From NCBI RefSeq assembly GCF_009301415.1, contig NZ_CP045072.1, forward strand, positions 1,355,001-1,419,000: a stretch of DNA of 64,000 bases, in the 5' to 3' direction. The notes beneath the pieces were generated by a model. That model had not been told where the DNA came from. It was given only the letters and a program-made list of their open reading frames with translations, and searched no databases. Both the position numbers and the translations under genes were made by a program. Each line of letters opens with the position of its first letter. The stretch's first letter is position 1. Shown here piece by piece: positions 9,736 to 13,932 of the stretch. Origin of the DNA: Paracoccus kondratievae (GTDB taxonomy: Bacteria; Pseudomonadota; Alphaproteobacteria; Rhodobacterales; Rhodobacteraceae).

Positions 9736-9813
9736 CGGGCCGTGGCGCAGCCTGGTTAGCGCGTCCGTCTGGGGGGCGGAAGGCCGCGAGTTCGAATCTC
9801 GCCGGCCCGACCA
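9736..9813 (+). tRNA. tRNA-Pro (GGG)
   Basis: Full cloverleaf: acceptor CGGGCCG/CGGCCCG, D stem GCGC/GCGC, anticodon stem TCCGT/GCGGA around loop CTGGGGG (anticodon GGG), T stem GCGAG/CTCGC around TTCGAAT, discriminator A and encoded CCA. Confidence 0.96.
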
Positions 9814-9817
9814 TTCC

Positions 9818-9857
9818 GAAAACGCCCATCCCCACCCGGGGATGGGCGTTTCCTTTT
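9818..9857 (+). terminator. Terminator after tRNA-Pro
   Basis: Long hairpin with arms AAACGCCCATCCCC and CGGGGATGGGCGTTT, followed by a T-rich tail (CCTTTT). Confidence 0.85.
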
Positions 9858-9873
9858 GCCAAAGGGGTTTTGC

Positions 9874-10941
9874 GTGAACGGAGTCCTTCCCGATACCGCC
9901 CTGCGCCAGCTGATCGAAAGCGGGGCGATCTCGGCTGACCAGCCGATCCTGCCCGAACAGATTCAGCCCGCAAGCCTTGATCTGCGCCTGGGCAGCACCG
10001 CATGGCGGCTGCGCGCTTCATTCCTTGCTGGACGCGGGCGCAAGGTCAGCGACCGGCTCGCGGATTTCGAAATGCACCGCATGGACCTGACCGGCGGTGC
10101 AGTGCTTGAAAAAGGCTGCGTCTATCTGGTCCCGCTGATGGAGCGGCTGTCCCTGCCCCAAGGCCTCGATGCCGTCGCCAATGCGAAAAGCTCAACCGGG
10201 CGGCTCGATCTGCTGACGCGGCTCGTCACTGACGAAGGCACCGAATTTGATCGCCTTGCCGAAGGCTATGACGGCCCCCTTTACGCCGAAATCTGCCCGC
10301 GCAGCTTCTCGGTACTGGTCCGGCCGGGCATGCGCCTGAACCAGCTGCGATTGCGACAGGGCCAGGCGGTTCTTTCCGATACCGAATTGCATCACCTGCA
10401 CAGGCAGGAGCCGCTGGTAACGGGTGAGGCACTGATCGACGACGGTCTCGGCTTCTCGGTAGATCTGCGGCCCACCCAAGGCGATCTCGTCGGATATCGC
10501 GCCCGCCCCCACAGCGGTGTCATCGACCTTGACCGCATCGGCGCCTATCAAGCACGCGATTTCTGGGATGAATTACACACCACAGACGGCCAGCTGATCC
10601 TCGACCCCGGTGCCTTCTACATCCTCGTCAGCCGTGAGGCAGTGGCGATCCCGCCCGATTATGCCGCCGAAATGGCCCCTTATCTGGCCATGGTGGGTGA
10701 ATTCCGGGTTCATTATGCAGGGTTCTTCGACCCCGGCTTCGGCCACGGCGCTGCTGGCAAAGGCGCGCGCGGCGTGCTCGAGGTACGCTGCCACGAAGCA
10801 CCCTTTGCGCTCGAGCACGGTCAGGTCGTCGGCCGCCTGGTCTATGAACGCATGGCAGCGCGCCCCGAACGCCTTTACGGCACCGGAATCGCATCGAACT
10901 ACCAAGGCCAGGGCCTTAAGCTGGCCAAGCAGTTCGCTTGA
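9874..10941 (+). CDS. dcd: 2'-deoxycytidine 5'-triphosphate deaminase (double-domain form)
   Basis: Deaminates dCTP to dUTP for thymidylate synthesis. At 355 residues it is about twice the length of E. coli Dcd and matches the alphaproteobacterial form built from two dUTPase-like folds. The first half has LPEQIQPASLDLRLG and ANAKSSTGRLDL; the second has DPGAFYILVSREAVAIPP and FDPGFGHGA. GTG 9874 with AAGGGG upstream is preferred to an in-frame TTG at 9856 that lies inside the preceding terminator. The gene stands alone between tRNA-Pro and the prophage remnant. Confidence 0.9.
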   Translation: MNGVLPDTALRQLIESGAISADQPILPEQIQPASLDLRLGSTAWRLRASFLAGRGRKVSDRLADFEMHRMDLTGGAVLEKGCVYLVPLMERLSLPQGLDAVANAKSSTGRLDLLTRLVTDEGTEFDRLAEGYDGPLYAEICPRSFSVLVRPGMRLNQLRLRQGQAVLSDTELHHLHRQEPLVTGEALIDDGLGFSVDLRPTQGDLVGYRARPHSGVIDLDRIGAYQARDFWDELHTTDGQLILDPGAFYILVSREAVAIPPDYAAEMAPYLAMVGEFRVHYAGFFDPGFGHGAAGKGARGVLEVRCHEAPFALEHGQVVGRLVYERMAARPERLYGTGIASNYQGQGLKLAKQFA

Positions 10942-11053
10942 CTTCCCCGACGCCCGAATGCGCCTCTGCTTCTTTCGTGCCCCAATATCCCGGTGGAGTC
11001 GCGCGGCTGACAGGTGACAAGAGGTTTGAGACTCTGCGATTTACCGAGCGTGT

Positions 11054-11162
11054 AAAATCAATGGGTTGCAAGGGTGAGTGTCAAAAAGTTTGAGCCTTTC
11101 GGCACGCAAGTCGCCTTTTTCGTGGAATCGTGTATATTCTGGCGTCGAAAAATCAATAGGTT
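11054..11162 (+). repeat. Two near-identical 14-bp direct repeats
   Basis: AAAATCAATGGGTT (11054-11067) and AAAATCAATAGGTT (11149-11162) differ at one base and lie 95 bases apart. They straddle the left terminal repeat of the prophage remnant. They may be incidental or relics of recombination or protein binding. Apart from these repeats, 10942-11188 shows no gene. Confidence 0.5.
11079..11097 (+). repeat. Left terminal inverted repeat of the prophage remnant
   Basis: TGTCAAAAAGTTTGAGCCT; pairs with the right repeat at 13007-13025 with three mismatches. Confidence 0.65.
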
Positions 11163-11188
11163 AGCTGAAAAGGTGCGCACGGTTTTAC

Positions 11189-11235
11189 GCAGATCTATCG
11201 TTAAGCGGACACTCAACGGTTAACGATAGATCTGC
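11189..11235. repeat. Perfect 16-bp inverted repeat with 15-base loop
   Basis: GCAGATCTATCGTTAA (11189-11204) and its exact complement TTAACGATAGATCTGC (11220-11235) enclose GCGGACACTCAACGG. There is no T-run on either side, so it is not a normal terminator. It marks the exact point where the truncated structural gene begins. The loop holds GACACTCA, the complement of TGAGTGTC, which spans the left end of the element at 11075-11082. Confidence 0.9.
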
Positions 11236-11370
11236 TTTATCGTGGATGATCGCACGGTGGCAAAGACCGATGGCAGCACCACCCGCTCGCCCGCCGGGGT
11301 GGTCGAGGACGTGGATTCCTCGGGTGTATGGGTTCGCCTGGACGAAGCCTTGACGCGGGCGCTGGCATGA
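11230..11370 (+). pseudogene. 3' fragment of a phage structural-type gene
   Basis: Open only from just after a TAG at 11227 to TGA 11368-11370, giving about 46 residues that include DDRTVAKTDGSTTRSPAGVV and end DSSGVWVRLDEALTRALA. This resembles the C-terminus of small head/decoration-type proteins encoded next to the Mu-like protease; the resemblance is from memory. The 5' part is missing at the 16-bp inverted repeat. The stop overlaps the protease start (ATGA), a relic of translational coupling. Confidence 0.5.
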
Positions 11371-12407
11371 GCCGTCCTATCGAATTCGCCGTTGACCTGA
11401 CGCTGACCGCCGAAGGCCAGGCCCCGGAATGGGTTCATCTCTTGCCGCTTGGCCACTTCGCCGCACGCGACGGGCGGGTGTTCGACAACTCGGACCCCGC
11501 TGCGCTGATCGCCACCTTCCGCGCGCGGGCGGTCGATCTGCCGATCGAAGAACGACCGACCCGAGGCCCGCCTGAATGGTCCGGTTCCGGCGGCTGGTTG
11601 GGTGAAGGAACTGATGCGCCGGGCGGATGGTATCTGGGGCCGCATCGAATGGACCGCGCGCGCCCGCGAGATGATCGCCAACCGCGAATATCGCTATCTC
11701 AGCCCGGCGATCAAATACCTCAAGTCCGGCGGGAAGGTTACGATGATCAAGGGCGCAGGTCTGGTGCATTCGCCCGCGCTGCGCCTGACTGCGCTTGCCG
11801 AAGAGGGTCAGGACGGTGACATCCCCAGCATCGCCGCCCAGGTCGTGGCCGAGGCGTTGGGGCTTGCACCCGATGCCAGCAAAGCCGACATTCTGGACCT
11901 GCTGCAACGCTTGCGCGACATGCTGGGCCGGGCGACGGGGCCAAAGGCGCCGTCGCGCAGCTGGCCGAGCTGGACGTGATCGCGCGCGACCTCGGGCAAG
12001 AAAACCGGATACCGCGCTATGCGCAGGGTGAACCGGATCCGGCCCGCTTCGTGCTGGCGGAGATGCTGCAAGCGGTCCTGACCGAGCGCAATGAGGCACA
12101 GGCCGTGCTATGCGAACAGAACGCCAAAGCGCGGGTCGATGACGCTTTCGCTCGGGGCTATCTCTCGCCTGCTATGCGCAACTGGGCGATGGCCCCCTGC
12201 ATGTCGGACCAACCGAGCTTAGATCTGTTCATCAAGAAGTCGATCCCGCTGTCCGCGCATCTGTTCCAGCCCGCGGCCACATCGACCATGCCGCCCGGAT
12301 TTGCGCAAAACGGCGGCGCGGCGATCCGTTCGGCTGAGGAAATCGCGATCTGCGAGCAACTCGGCCTCAAGCCCGAATCGCTTCTGATTGACCGGATCGG
12401 GCCGTGA
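11367..12407 (+). pseudogene. Mu-like phage protease (I/gp32-type), frameshifted
   Basis: Reconstructed across three frames. It starts MSRPIEFAVDLTLTAEGQAPEWVHLLPLG, then DGRVFDNSDPAALIATF and VDLPIE in frame 1. After a shift near 11543 it continues NDRPEARLNGPVPAAGWVKEL, then DGIWGRIEWTARAREMIANR and YRYLSPAIKYLKSGGKV. After a second shift near 11937 it continues AVAQLAELDVIARDL to the stop at 12407. Order and content fit the Mu I protease/scaffold family. The first shift falls where intact relatives carry the short conserved block after DLPI, so that block appears lost. No functional product is expected. Confidence 0.7.
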
Positions 12408-12409
12408 CG

Positions 12410-12993
12410 GGCGGCCGGAGCGCAGATCCACCGCGAAAGAAACACAAAACGCCAGTTCAACGCCTGATGAAGCCCTGTTGCAGCATGTGGCTGCGCATCG
12501 TCCGGGCCGACCGGGCAAGATCGCTTCGGACTCCGAATTGCGCGCCTTTGTCGAAGCGCGGCTTTCGCACATGACCTTTGCCGAGATCGAGGCTGCGGTG
12601 ACGGCGCAGGTCGCGCCTTTCGTCCAGGTCCCCGGGCTTGAGGGCGCGATTCGCTTCATTCTCGCCTTCGGTGATGCCGAGCTTTACATCGGCAAGAACC
12701 CTCGCGACACCAACGAGCTGGTGCAGATGTTCGGGCGCAAGTCTGCCGAGGCGTTCGCGACCCTCGCCACGCTGTCCCGCCGCATCCCCCCGCGAAGCCA
12801 TGGCTTGCTGCCCATTCCTATGCGCAGGGTCTGTCCATTGCCCGGATCGCCCACAAGCTGCGCATCTCCGATATCTCGGCGCACCTATCTGCGCCGCGAG
12901 GCCGAGAACCGCGAACGACTGCGCGCCGACGCCGAACGCCGAAGATCACGCCTCCCTGCCCGCAATCCTCTGCAATCGGTTATTCCCAGCTGA
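12410..12993 (+). pseudogene. Decayed phage regulators: DNA-binding-like segment fused to a Mor-like fragment
   Basis: The first segment, HRPGRPGKIASDSELRAFVE then ARLSHMTFAEIEAAVTA, resembles a small DNA-binding protein of Rhodobacteraceae Mu-like prophages but stops short. It runs on into FGDAELYIGKNPRDTNELVQ, and after a frameshift near 12793 into KPWLAAHSYAQGLSIARIAH, a helix-turn-helix-like string typical of Mor-type activators. A further shift near 12880 leads to YLRREAENRERLRADAERRR. At least one deletion and two shifts are needed to explain it. In Mu, mor precedes the late genes, so its place after the protease also points to rearrangement. Confidence 0.5.
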
Positions 12994-13006
12994 TGCCACG
13001 AAAAAC

Positions 13007-13037
13007 AGGCTCAGATCTTTTGACACCGGTTTTGACA
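13007..13037 (-). repeat. Right terminal repeat of the prophage remnant, with an extra outer copy
   Basis: AGGCTCAGATCTTTTGACA (13007-13025) is the right inverted repeat. GTTTTGACA (13029-13037) is a second copy of the terminal bases 12 bases further out, as expected for repeated transposase-binding sites. Confidence 0.6.
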
Positions 13038-13056
13038 CATGACCGCGGCGGCCCAG

Positions 13057-13251
13057 CTACCGCATCCGCCGCAGGATCCGCGTTACCTGTTGAAAGCGCT
13101 TCGTTGTCTCACGCGCAGCCTTGTCACGGCGACGCTGCTCAGCGGTACGCTTTTCACCTGGTTTCGGCGCATTCATCCGCCGGACGCCCCAGTTCAGTAA
13201 ACGATTGCCAAACATGCGCGTCAGCATATTGATAAGTTGGTTCCAATTCAT
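13057..13251 (-). CDS. Small conserved hypothetical protein
   Basis: A 64-residue, very basic protein with an N-terminal amphipathic or hydrophobic stretch (WNQLINMLTRMFGNRLLNWG) and a Lys/Arg-rich C-terminal half (RRRDKAARETTKRFQQ). I recall similar short proteins beside scpB in Rhodobacteraceae, but the function is unknown. It is 18 bases upstream of scpB on the same strand, so it may be the first gene of the scpBA transcript's downstream end or an independent gene; transcription order runs scpA, scpB, then this gene. GGGTAA lies upstream of its ATG. Confidence 0.6.
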   Translation of the reverse strand: MNWNQLINMLTRMFGNRLLNWGVRRMNAPKPGEKRTAEQRRRDKAARETTKRFQQVTRILRRMR

Positions 13252-13269
13252 AAAGTTACCCTAAACATC

Positions 13270-13932
13270 TCACTCATCCTCGAATAAATCTTCGGCCAGA
13301 ACCTCGGCATCATCCTCAGGCTCGGTGTCGAAAAGTCCCGGCGCCCCGGCCTCGCCGGGCGGGCGCGAATCCAGCAAACCTGCGGCGCGCAGCTCAGCCA
13401 GCCCCGGCAGGTCACGGGCGCTTTCCAATCCGAAATGGTCCAGAAAGCTTTCGGTCACAACAAAAGTCACCGGCCTGCCCGGAGTCTGACGACGGCGGCC
13501 GATGCGAACCCAGCCAAGTTCAATCAACTGGTCCAGAGTGCCCCGACTGACTGCGACGCCGCGAATCTCTTCGATCTCGGCCCGGGTGACGGGCTGGTGA
13601 TAGGCGATGATGGCAAGGGTTTCGGTCGCAGCACGGGACAGACGACGACTTTCAACCACATTGTCCTGCATCAGAAAGCCCAGATCGGCGGCGGTGCGAA
13701 ACGCCCAGGAATCGCCGACGCGCGCCAACTGCACCCCCCGCCCTTCATAGCGCGTTCGAAGTGCCTGCAGGGCCTCGCCTGCGTCACAGCCCGCGGGCAG
13801 GCGCGCCGAAATCTCGCGCTGGCTCATCGGCTCGGCCGAGGCAAAAAGGATCGCTTCGACCATACGCTCCTGCTCGGCAAGTGGAGGTGGCGGAAAACGC
13901 TTCTGATCTGGGTCTTGATCGTCCTGACTCAT
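13270..13932 (-). CDS. scpB: Segregation and condensation protein B
   Basis: Kleisin-associated winged-helix protein of the SMC-ScpAB condensin, acting in chromosome segregation. It has 220 residues. The two winged-helix regions begin ERMVEAILFASAEPMSQREI and ETLAIIAYHQPVTRAEIEEI (the latter with RGVAVSRGTLDQL). The acidic C-terminus ends DTEPEDDAEVLAEDLFEDE. The start at 13932 overlaps the scpA stop (ATGA) and gives the usual N-terminus; a longer in-frame extension lies wholly within scpA. Confidence 0.93.
   Translation of the reverse strand: MSQDDQDPDQKRFPPPPLAEQERMVEAILFASAEPMSQREISARLPAGCDAGEALQALRTRYEGRGVQLARVGDSWAFRTAADLGFLMQDNVVESRRLSRAATETLAIIAYHQPVTRAEIEEIRGVAVSRGTLDQLIELGWVRIGRRRQTPGRPVTFVVTESFLDHFGLESARDLPGLAELRAAGLLDSRPPGEAGAPGLFDTEPEDDAEVLAEDLFEDE

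What the first reader, a model, noticed from the sequence alone, without database searches (positions are those of the whole stretch)
11079..13037. A decayed Mu-like prophage still framed by terminal inverted repeats
Seen directly: TGTCAAAAAGTTTGAGCCT at the left and TGTCAAAAGATCTGAGCCT (inward) at the right, 16/19 identical, plus an outer TGTCAAAAC copy on the right. The three plus-strand gene relics between them are all phage-type. TGT...ACA ends are known for Mu/Tn7-type elements. The element is only 1.95 kb, so nearly all of a ~35-kb phage has been deleted while both ends survived, a rare intermediate for studying prophage loss. No matching 5-bp target duplication was found.
Basis: partly seen in the sequence, partly recalled or inferred. 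Interest (0 to 1): 0.68.

Follow-up and report, generated by a model that had tools for sequence, protein, structure and literature searches.

The report
Wreck of a transposing phage satellite
This stretch is the broken remains of a small (about 8 kb) bacterial mobile element that jumps like phage Mu and carries its own phage-head genes but no DNA-packaging motor or full tail, so it probably travels by hijacking a larger phage; better-preserved relatives sit in many marine and soil bacteria.

Summary
The two 19-mers are real, but they are inner repeat sites, not the ends. It is not the stump of a 35-kb phage. Its relatives are a distinct lineage (9 of 17 end-bounded copies are 7.9-8.8 kb), mainly in Rhodobacteraceae: repressor, MuA- and MuB-like proteins, GemA, capsid T, protease I, a late activator, an HTH protein (possible small terminase), often decoration and neck proteins. 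I found no large terminase or portal in them; one copy (L151) holds a tape-measure-like segment. Gene order T-I is the reverse of full phages (31 of 31 T-I loci show no packaging/tail genes; the 35 loci with such genes and readable order are I-T). Best reading: a capsid-encoding phage satellite moving by Mu-type transposition; a 2024 paper describes known satellites as integrase-based. Insertions cluster at a REP-like repeat (11 of 17). Helper dependence is inferred, not shown.

The parts
10983..10996 (+). REP-like repeat core (CAATATCCCGGTGG, two mismatches to AAATAYCCCGGGGG) in which the element inserted
   Evidence: the repeat is present without the element in related genomes
11003..11007 (.). 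left copy of 5-bp target duplication GCGGC
11008..13044 (+). whole decayed element, 2,037 bp, TGAC...GACC (GACA in G011)
11015..11033 (+). left end repeat site 1 (TGACAAGAGGTTTGAGACT)
11189..11235 (.). 19-bp inverted repeat at the junction where about 4.15 kb of G011 (repressor, transposase part, an IS, capsid T and most of the decoration gene) is missing
   Evidence: a 15-mer of the arms matches nowhere else in the genome
11233..11367 (+). 3' end of decoration-protein gene (phrog_1731 type), residues 100-144 of the G011 protein
   Evidence: family assigned on L070
11367..12386 (+). head protease/scaffold I (PF10123 in G011), pseudogene read in two frames
12414..12618 (+). HTH protein gene, possible small terminase (phrog_426, weak), frame-damaged and 3'-truncated
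12601..12942 (+). late transcriptional activator gene (phrog_836), 5'-truncated and frame-damaged
13029..13037 (-). right end repeat site 1 (TGTCAAAAC)
13045..13049 (.). right copy of 5-bp target duplication GCGGC

Best explanation
The feature is a dead, internally deleted copy of a small Mu-type transposable element, a member of a lineage of ~8-kb elements found across Rhodobacteraceae. A well-preserved member inserts by its own MuA/MuB-type transposition (shown by gene content, TGA...ACA ends and 5-bp duplications), preferentially at a REP-like intergenic repeat (shown as a statistical preference). It encodes a major capsid protein, a head protease/scaffold, a late activator, an HTH protein that may be a small terminase, and often a decoration and a neck protein (shown), but no large terminase or portal and, with one partial exception (L151), no tail gene (shown within the sensitivity used). 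The inferred life cycle is that of a capsid-encoding phage satellite. When a Mu-like or other helper phage is active, the satellite is induced, replicates by transposition, builds its own (probably small) heads and borrows the helper's packaging motor, portal, tail and lysis. In the window, deletions removed the repressor, transposition, capsid and neck genes, and the remaining genes are damaged, leaving an immobile scar with both ends.
For: Ends and TSD. Empty sites in four related genomes. Family with conserved gene order. Seventeen elements with 5-bp TSDs accepted out of 45 loci scanned; in five of them (L108, L109, L122, L123, L133; 7,951-8,551 bp) A, B, T and I are all open. Control: 12 of 45 own left/right pairs reach 15/22 end identity with a matching TSD, versus 2 of 1,980 pairs taken from different loci. 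Of 80 genome loci with the capsid gene, 31 have order T-I and none of these shows packaging or tail genes; 35 show such genes with I-T order. T of 41 full-length phages lies on one side of one branch, support 98/75, in 99% of 200 bootstrap trees. T, I, A and GemA show dN/dS of about 0.14-0.33 in the eight informative pairs. 13 of 19 element-bearing genomes have no Mu-type portal (PF06074) match at E<=1e-10. PHROGs/Pfam identities.
Against: I saw no induction, particle or transfer data for any member. No specific helper is identified; co-occurrence with Mu-portal prophages is modest (6 of 19 genomes versus 43 of 375, Fisher p 0.021). The small-terminase call is weak: phrog_426 in 2 of 10 members, no Foldseek match at E<=0.001, hhalign probability 19%. 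Twenty-eight of 45 scanned loci gave no accepted end pair. L151, one of the 17, lacks I and holds a segment similar to part of tape-measure proteins (ThpS-P1, E 1.7e-30). Several bounded copies are damaged: a stop in T (L105), in I (L106), in A and T (L119), interrupted or truncated A (L061, L103, L110, L142, L153). Small-element T proteins are not one exclusive clade: 38 of 39 group together with five unclear rows, L160 lies outside. The window copy itself keeps no transposase or capsid gene.
Confidence: 0.7

Rival explanations
1. Remnant of an ordinary 35-40 kb Mu-like prophage from which almost everything was deleted.
For: The window copy really is internally deleted relative to G011; full-length Mu-like phages occur in the family and one lies in this genome at C2:~152.7-182 kb.
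Against: Order decoration-I-HTH-activator with the right end close behind matches the small elements, not phages; relatives with the same ends are 4.7 and 6.9 kb and the wider family mostly ~8 kb; capsid T of small elements and of full phages separates on the tree (the window keeps no T, so this applies to its relatives).
Confidence: 0.05
2. The small elements are capsid-gene-bearing transposons that no longer make particles: phage-derived transposons that spread only within cells, by plasmids or by passive transduction.
For: They have a transposition module and lack packaging motor and portal genes; 13 of 19 host genomes show no Mu-type portal.
Against: T and I stay open in most well-preserved copies and show dN/dS of 0.14-0.33, near that of the transposase, hard to explain if heads are never used; activator and, in part, neck and decoration genes are retained with them.
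Confidence: 0.2
3. The elements hijack the gene transfer agent (RcGTA-type particles) of Rhodobacterales instead of a Mu-like phage.
For: RcGTA genes are described as well conserved in Rhodobacterales (abstract start of PMC9836097 in the listing).
Against: The head genes are Mu-type, so a Mu-like portal would be the expected partner; not tested further.
Confidence: 0.05

Closest known systems
[quoted passage not shown]
   Same: transposition proteins, repressor, gpT/gpI-type heads, neck protein
   Different: RS1 and ThpS-P1 records are ~40 kb with terminase, portal and tail genes and order I-decoration-T; the elements are ~8 kb, order T-(decoration)-I, without terminase large subunit or portal; T on the other side of a branch
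Capsid-forming PICIs (cf-PICI)
   Same: small satellite with its own capsid genes, presumed to borrow the rest from a helper
   Different: PMC10803314 describes known satellites as integrating at specific sites with an integrase and cf-PICI as 14 kb on average (passages); these elements use Mu-type transposition at many sites and are ~8 kb
PmCI172 (Pasteurella multocida PICI with a Mu-like helper)
   Same: satellite whose helper is Mu-like, encodes a capsid homologue and gives small heads (passages of PMC6092414)
   Different: described as a PICI; the main text of that paper does not hold the word 'transposase'
REP hotspots of Pseudomonas saltoviruses (Ab30, HW12, 2P1)
   Same: transposable phages with insertion hotspots near a REP-like motif (PMC5977238, section 3.3 read)
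   Different: about 5% of Ab30 insertions during phage growth there; 11 of 17 resident copies here, which may also reflect survival

Membership tests
Mu-like transposable element | ends of TG...CA type with 5-bp target duplication | tested here: met
   window GCGGC with one terminal substitution; 16 relatives; mismatched-pair control
Mu-like transposable element | MuA/MuB-type transposition genes | tested here: met
   relatives: phrog_310 and phrog_296, DDE_2 in G011; absent from the window copy, where that part is deleted
Mu-like phage | complete virion gene set: large terminase, portal, tail | tested here: not met
   no large terminase, portal or F hit in the small-element loci by tblastn with RS1 and ThpS-P1 proteins; tail: one tape-measure-like segment in L151 only; no PF06074 portal in 13 of 19 element-bearing genomes
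Phage satellite | distinct small genome that recurs independently, not a degraded phage | tested here: met
Phage satellite | dependence on and packaging by a helper phage | not testable with these tools
   needs induction and particle sequencing; co-occurrence only suggestive
cf-PICI | own capsid genes | tested here: met
   gpT (PF10124, phrog_371) and gpI (PF10123, phrog_328):
cf-PICI / PICI | site-specific integrase and att site | tested here: not met
   Mu-type transposase instead; 14 different duplicated 5-mers among 17 insertions. No dedicated search for an integrase was made
Phage satellite with own small terminase | TerS that redirects packaging | tested here: inconclusive
   phrog_426 E 6.7e-5, 2 of 10 members; fold search negative; hhalign 19%; HTH_32 in 7 of 10 at E<=1

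The most novel reading that the evidence does not exclude
A new class of phage satellite that spreads by Mu-type replicative transposition rather than by an integrase, builds its own (perhaps smaller) head from Mu-type head genes arranged in a private order, takes motor and tail from a helper, and lands preferentially in REP-like repeats; the window holds one of its fossils.
Probability: 0.6. Interest if true: 0.88.

Novelty: new variant of a known kind. Interest (0 to 1): 0.8.

Why it matters
PMC10803314 calls integration at specific sites, with satellite-encoded integrases for excision, common to all known satellites (passage). A lineage with a whole Mu-type transposition module plus head genes would show that satellites also arose from transposable phages. 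It would turn some short 'defective Mu' remnants in Rhodobacteraceae into members of an evolving element family, and it is directly testable in strains whose copy has A, B, T and I open, such as Rhodobacter capsulatus SP108 (L133) and Maritimibacter fusiformis HY14 (L148, same locus as L123).

Tried and rejected
Rejected: the 19-mers as termini (they lie 71 bp inside on the left and 19 bp inside on the right). Rejected: decay of a 35-kb phage (see rivals). Tried without result: a fold search for the HTH protein (52 weak viral hits, none at E<=0.001); a defence-gene scan of 10 small unknown proteins (0 of 10 with a PADLOC match); locating the ends of the host's own full-length prophage and of the one in G509 (191 and 242 candidates, nothing convincing); an origin for the hairpin at the deletion junction (only its own two arms match a 15-mer in the genome).

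Weak or dropped rows: L110 and L133 have only 11/22 end identity and were kept because the flanks agree; L165 reaches 12/22 and was not counted because its gene content was not confirmed; L053 and L055 have recognisable ends but gave no convincing duplication; 28 of the 45 loci scanned gave no accepted pair. At the loose threshold of 11/22 the mismatched-pair control is not clean (127 of 1,980). In one search the value 13 for the window is not the accepted pair, because that scan required ACA at the right end; without the window, 14 of the other 44 loci pass 13/22. From I opened 26 loci, so 19 of 394 genomes is a lower bound; one of the 19 (G330) shows only I and the HTH gene. Only the Mu-type portal model PF06074 was searched, not other portal types. 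In one search a ninth pair (L131-L085, dS 0.01) is too close to inform. The rows of the tree are 91 loci that I chose from those held. In one search the L111 repressor had a weak blastp match to a phage lysis protein (threshold 0.01), not followed.

Literature: ten searches, of which eight bear on satellites and/or Mu-like phages, 72 on cf-PICI and 91 on REP targets. No title or abstract start in their listings describes a satellite with Mu-type transposition; searches list only 12 of 1,924 and 10 of 25 papers. I read passages of PMC6092414, PMC5488378, PMC10803314, PMC10689766, PMC11389934 and passages plus section 3.3 of PMC5977238; the rest were seen as listings. The library holds few subscription papers, and the transposable-phage survey PMC10284936 was not held. 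So absence from print is not shown.

Full report
Observation. A consensus of the two finds them plus a third copy at 11015 in the whole window, against 0.06 expected. They are not the termini. The region 9736-13900 was searched in 101 genomes of the same genus. All 101 had some match, mostly on the dcd side; among the matches listed (the list was cut), only G011, at the same locus, and G062, at another locus, matched the interior. Aligning the three copies puts the left end at 11008 (TGACAGGTGACAAGAGG; TGACGGGTGTCAAAAGG in both relatives) and the right end at 13044. The 19-mers are then inner sites, and sites of the same form recur at both ends of relatives. They look like transposase-binding sites; that is an inference.

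Target duplication. G011 has GGGGG and G062 has ACCCC on both sides; the window has GCGGC on both sides if its last element base is a substitution. A blind scan of the window ranked another pair, inside host genes, above it, so the window's ends rest on homology. In four related genomes (G056, G057, G092, G083) the dcd-side and scpB-side matches lie 5 to 22 bases apart, with the repeat but no element between them. The G011 copy sits in the same intergenic repeat but with a different duplication, so it was probably an independent insertion.

What is left inside. Mapping G011 proteins on the window gives: the end of a decoration gene (11233-11367), protease I (11367-12386, in two frames), an HTH gene (12414-12618, truncated) and a late-activator gene (12601-12942, truncated and frame-damaged). 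The G011 transposase, capsid T and neck gene G have no match. About 4.15 kb of G011 is missing at 11191-11233, where the window has a 19-bp inverted repeat (11189-11235) of which a 15-mer occurs nowhere else in the genome. The G011 copy itself holds an IS transposase between A and T.

The family. Two IMG/VR contigs of 8.6 and 8.8 kb (L070, L071) carry a repressor, MuA- and MuB-like proteins, two small genes, GemA, T, decoration, I, a late activator and a neck protein. A search of 394 Rhodobacteraceae genomes with the L070 protease and annotation of the 26 loci opened from it shows the same arrangement, whole or in part, in 22 loci of 18 genomes: A, then GemA, T, I, and then activator, HTH and neck genes in varying order and completeness; the HTH gene is found in 20 of these 22. 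Gene calls on 15 elements agree and add the MuB-like gene. In these 22 loci tblastn with RS1 and ThpS-P1 proteins found no large terminase, portal, F or tail gene. The MuA-like proteins fall into two sets only 17-19% identical, while T is 57-70% identical to the L070 protein throughout, so the transposition module has been exchanged while the head module was kept.

They are not decayed phages. Of 80 loci found in named genomes with the T alignment (the best 80 of 550 relatives), 31 have order T-I and none of these shows packaging or tail genes; 35 show such genes together with I-T order; 8 are I-T without them (four on contigs under 6 kb); 6 are undecided, among them L151, which lacks I and holds a tape-measure-like segment. 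In a tree of 91 chosen T proteins, the 41 from full-length phages lie on one side of one branch (support 98/75; 99% of 200 bootstrap trees). The other side holds the 39 small-element rows and 11 unclear ones; 38 of the 39 group with five unclear rows from Rhizobium and Chelatococcus (100/99), and L160 lies outside that group. dN/dS computed is about 0.14-0.25 for T, 0.23-0.33 for I, 0.15 for A and 0.15 for GemA.

Ends, size and state. Of 45 loci scanned, I accept 17 with a 5-bp duplication and related ends: window 2,037 bp; L022 4,743; L153 4,896; L021 6,868; L119 6,900; L109 7,951; L108 7,952; L123 8,173; L105 8,263; L110 8,272; L122 8,301; L133 8,551; L106 8,621; L061 8,712; L151 9,274; L103 10,815; L142 11,018. 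In five (L108, L109, L122, L123, L133) A, B, T and I are all open; L105 has a stop in T, L106 in I, L119 in A and T, and A is interrupted or cut in L061, L103, L110, L142 and L153. Ten further loci without accepted ends also have A, B, T and I open (L070, L071, L111, L112, L113, L116, L134, L138, L177, L180). Control: with TSD required and end identity of at least 15/22, 12 of 45 own pairs pass against 2 of 1,980 pairs made from different loci; at 13/22, 15 of 45 against 22 of 1,980 (the window's value there is not its accepted pair); at 11/22, 18 of 45 against 127 of 1,980. L110 and L133 (11/22) are therefore weak.

Insertion site. Eleven of the 17 insertions lie within 60 bp of AAATAYCCCGGGGG (up to 2 mismatches); in the flanks of the same elements 847 of 211,321 positions do (0.4%), p about 5e-23; with one mismatch 8 of 17 against 0.29%. 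Even with an assumed background of 5%, 11 of 17 has p about 5e-11. The window and G011 share one intergenic region and are not fully independent. The exact core occurs 14 times in this genome. Preference for such sites and survival at them cannot be separated here. Pseudomonas transposable phages also have REP-like hotspots (PMC5977238, section 3.3 read), so this trait is not unique.

How it probably works. Shown: a transposition module, head genes, Mu-type duplications, and lack of large terminase and portal. Inferred: induction, head building and use of a helper's motor and tail. Of the 19 genomes (18 plus this one) in which I recognise the element, 6 also hold a Mu-type portal gene, against 43 of 375 others (p 0.021). 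The other 13 show no PF06074 match, so those elements do not carry that gene. The HTH protein near the right end might be a small terminase, but the evidence is weak.

Comparison. Known satellites are described as integrating at specific sites with an integrase (PMC10803314, passages). PmCI172 is a PICI with a Mu-like helper and small heads (PMC6092414, passages). A 2024 review (PMC11389934) does not hold the term 'transposable phage' in its main text; it names P4-like, PICI, cfPICI, PLE and PICMI, and further proposed families (VEIMEs, Tycheposons) that I did not compare. In ten searches no listed title or abstract start describes a satellite with Mu-type transposition, within the limits of an open-access library.

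Verdict. The window feature is a fossil of a small, capsid-encoding, Mu-type element family, probably satellites.

Noticed in passing
G000:C2:~152700-182050 (outside the window; loci L211, L068, L069): The same genome holds a full-length Mu-like prophage (transposition genes, GemA, lysis, terminase large subunit, portal, F, I, decoration, T, tape measure, tail protein J), a possible helper type; its ends were not resolved.
   Followed up: partly
window 10983-10996 and 14 exact copies in G000: REP-like intergenic repeat with core AAATAYCCCGGGGG, seen in several Rhodobacteraceae and repeatedly hit by these elements.
   Followed up: partly
window 11189-11235: 19-bp near-perfect inverted repeat with a 9-nt loop at the internal deletion junction; a 15-mer of its arms is unique in the genome.
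   Followed up: partly
L103, L114, L117, L118 (genome G509): At least four copies or fragments of the small element in one genome that also holds a Mu-portal prophage.
   Followed up: no
L149, L156, L165, L185 (Rhizobium) and L150 (Chelatococcus): T-bearing loci without packaging or tail hits, grouping inside the small-element side of the T tree: likely the same kind of element outside Rhodobacteraceae.
   Followed up: partly
L151:11068-11478 (Rhodovulum marinum): An end-bounded copy lacks protease I and instead has a segment similar to part of the ThpS-P1 and RS1 tape-measure proteins.
   Followed up: no
L130 end (Thiobacimonas phage vB_ThpS-P1): The record's right terminus, TGTTGGGTGACACTC, resembles the right end of the small element L061, TGTGTAATGACACTT: possible shared end recognition.
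   Followed up: no
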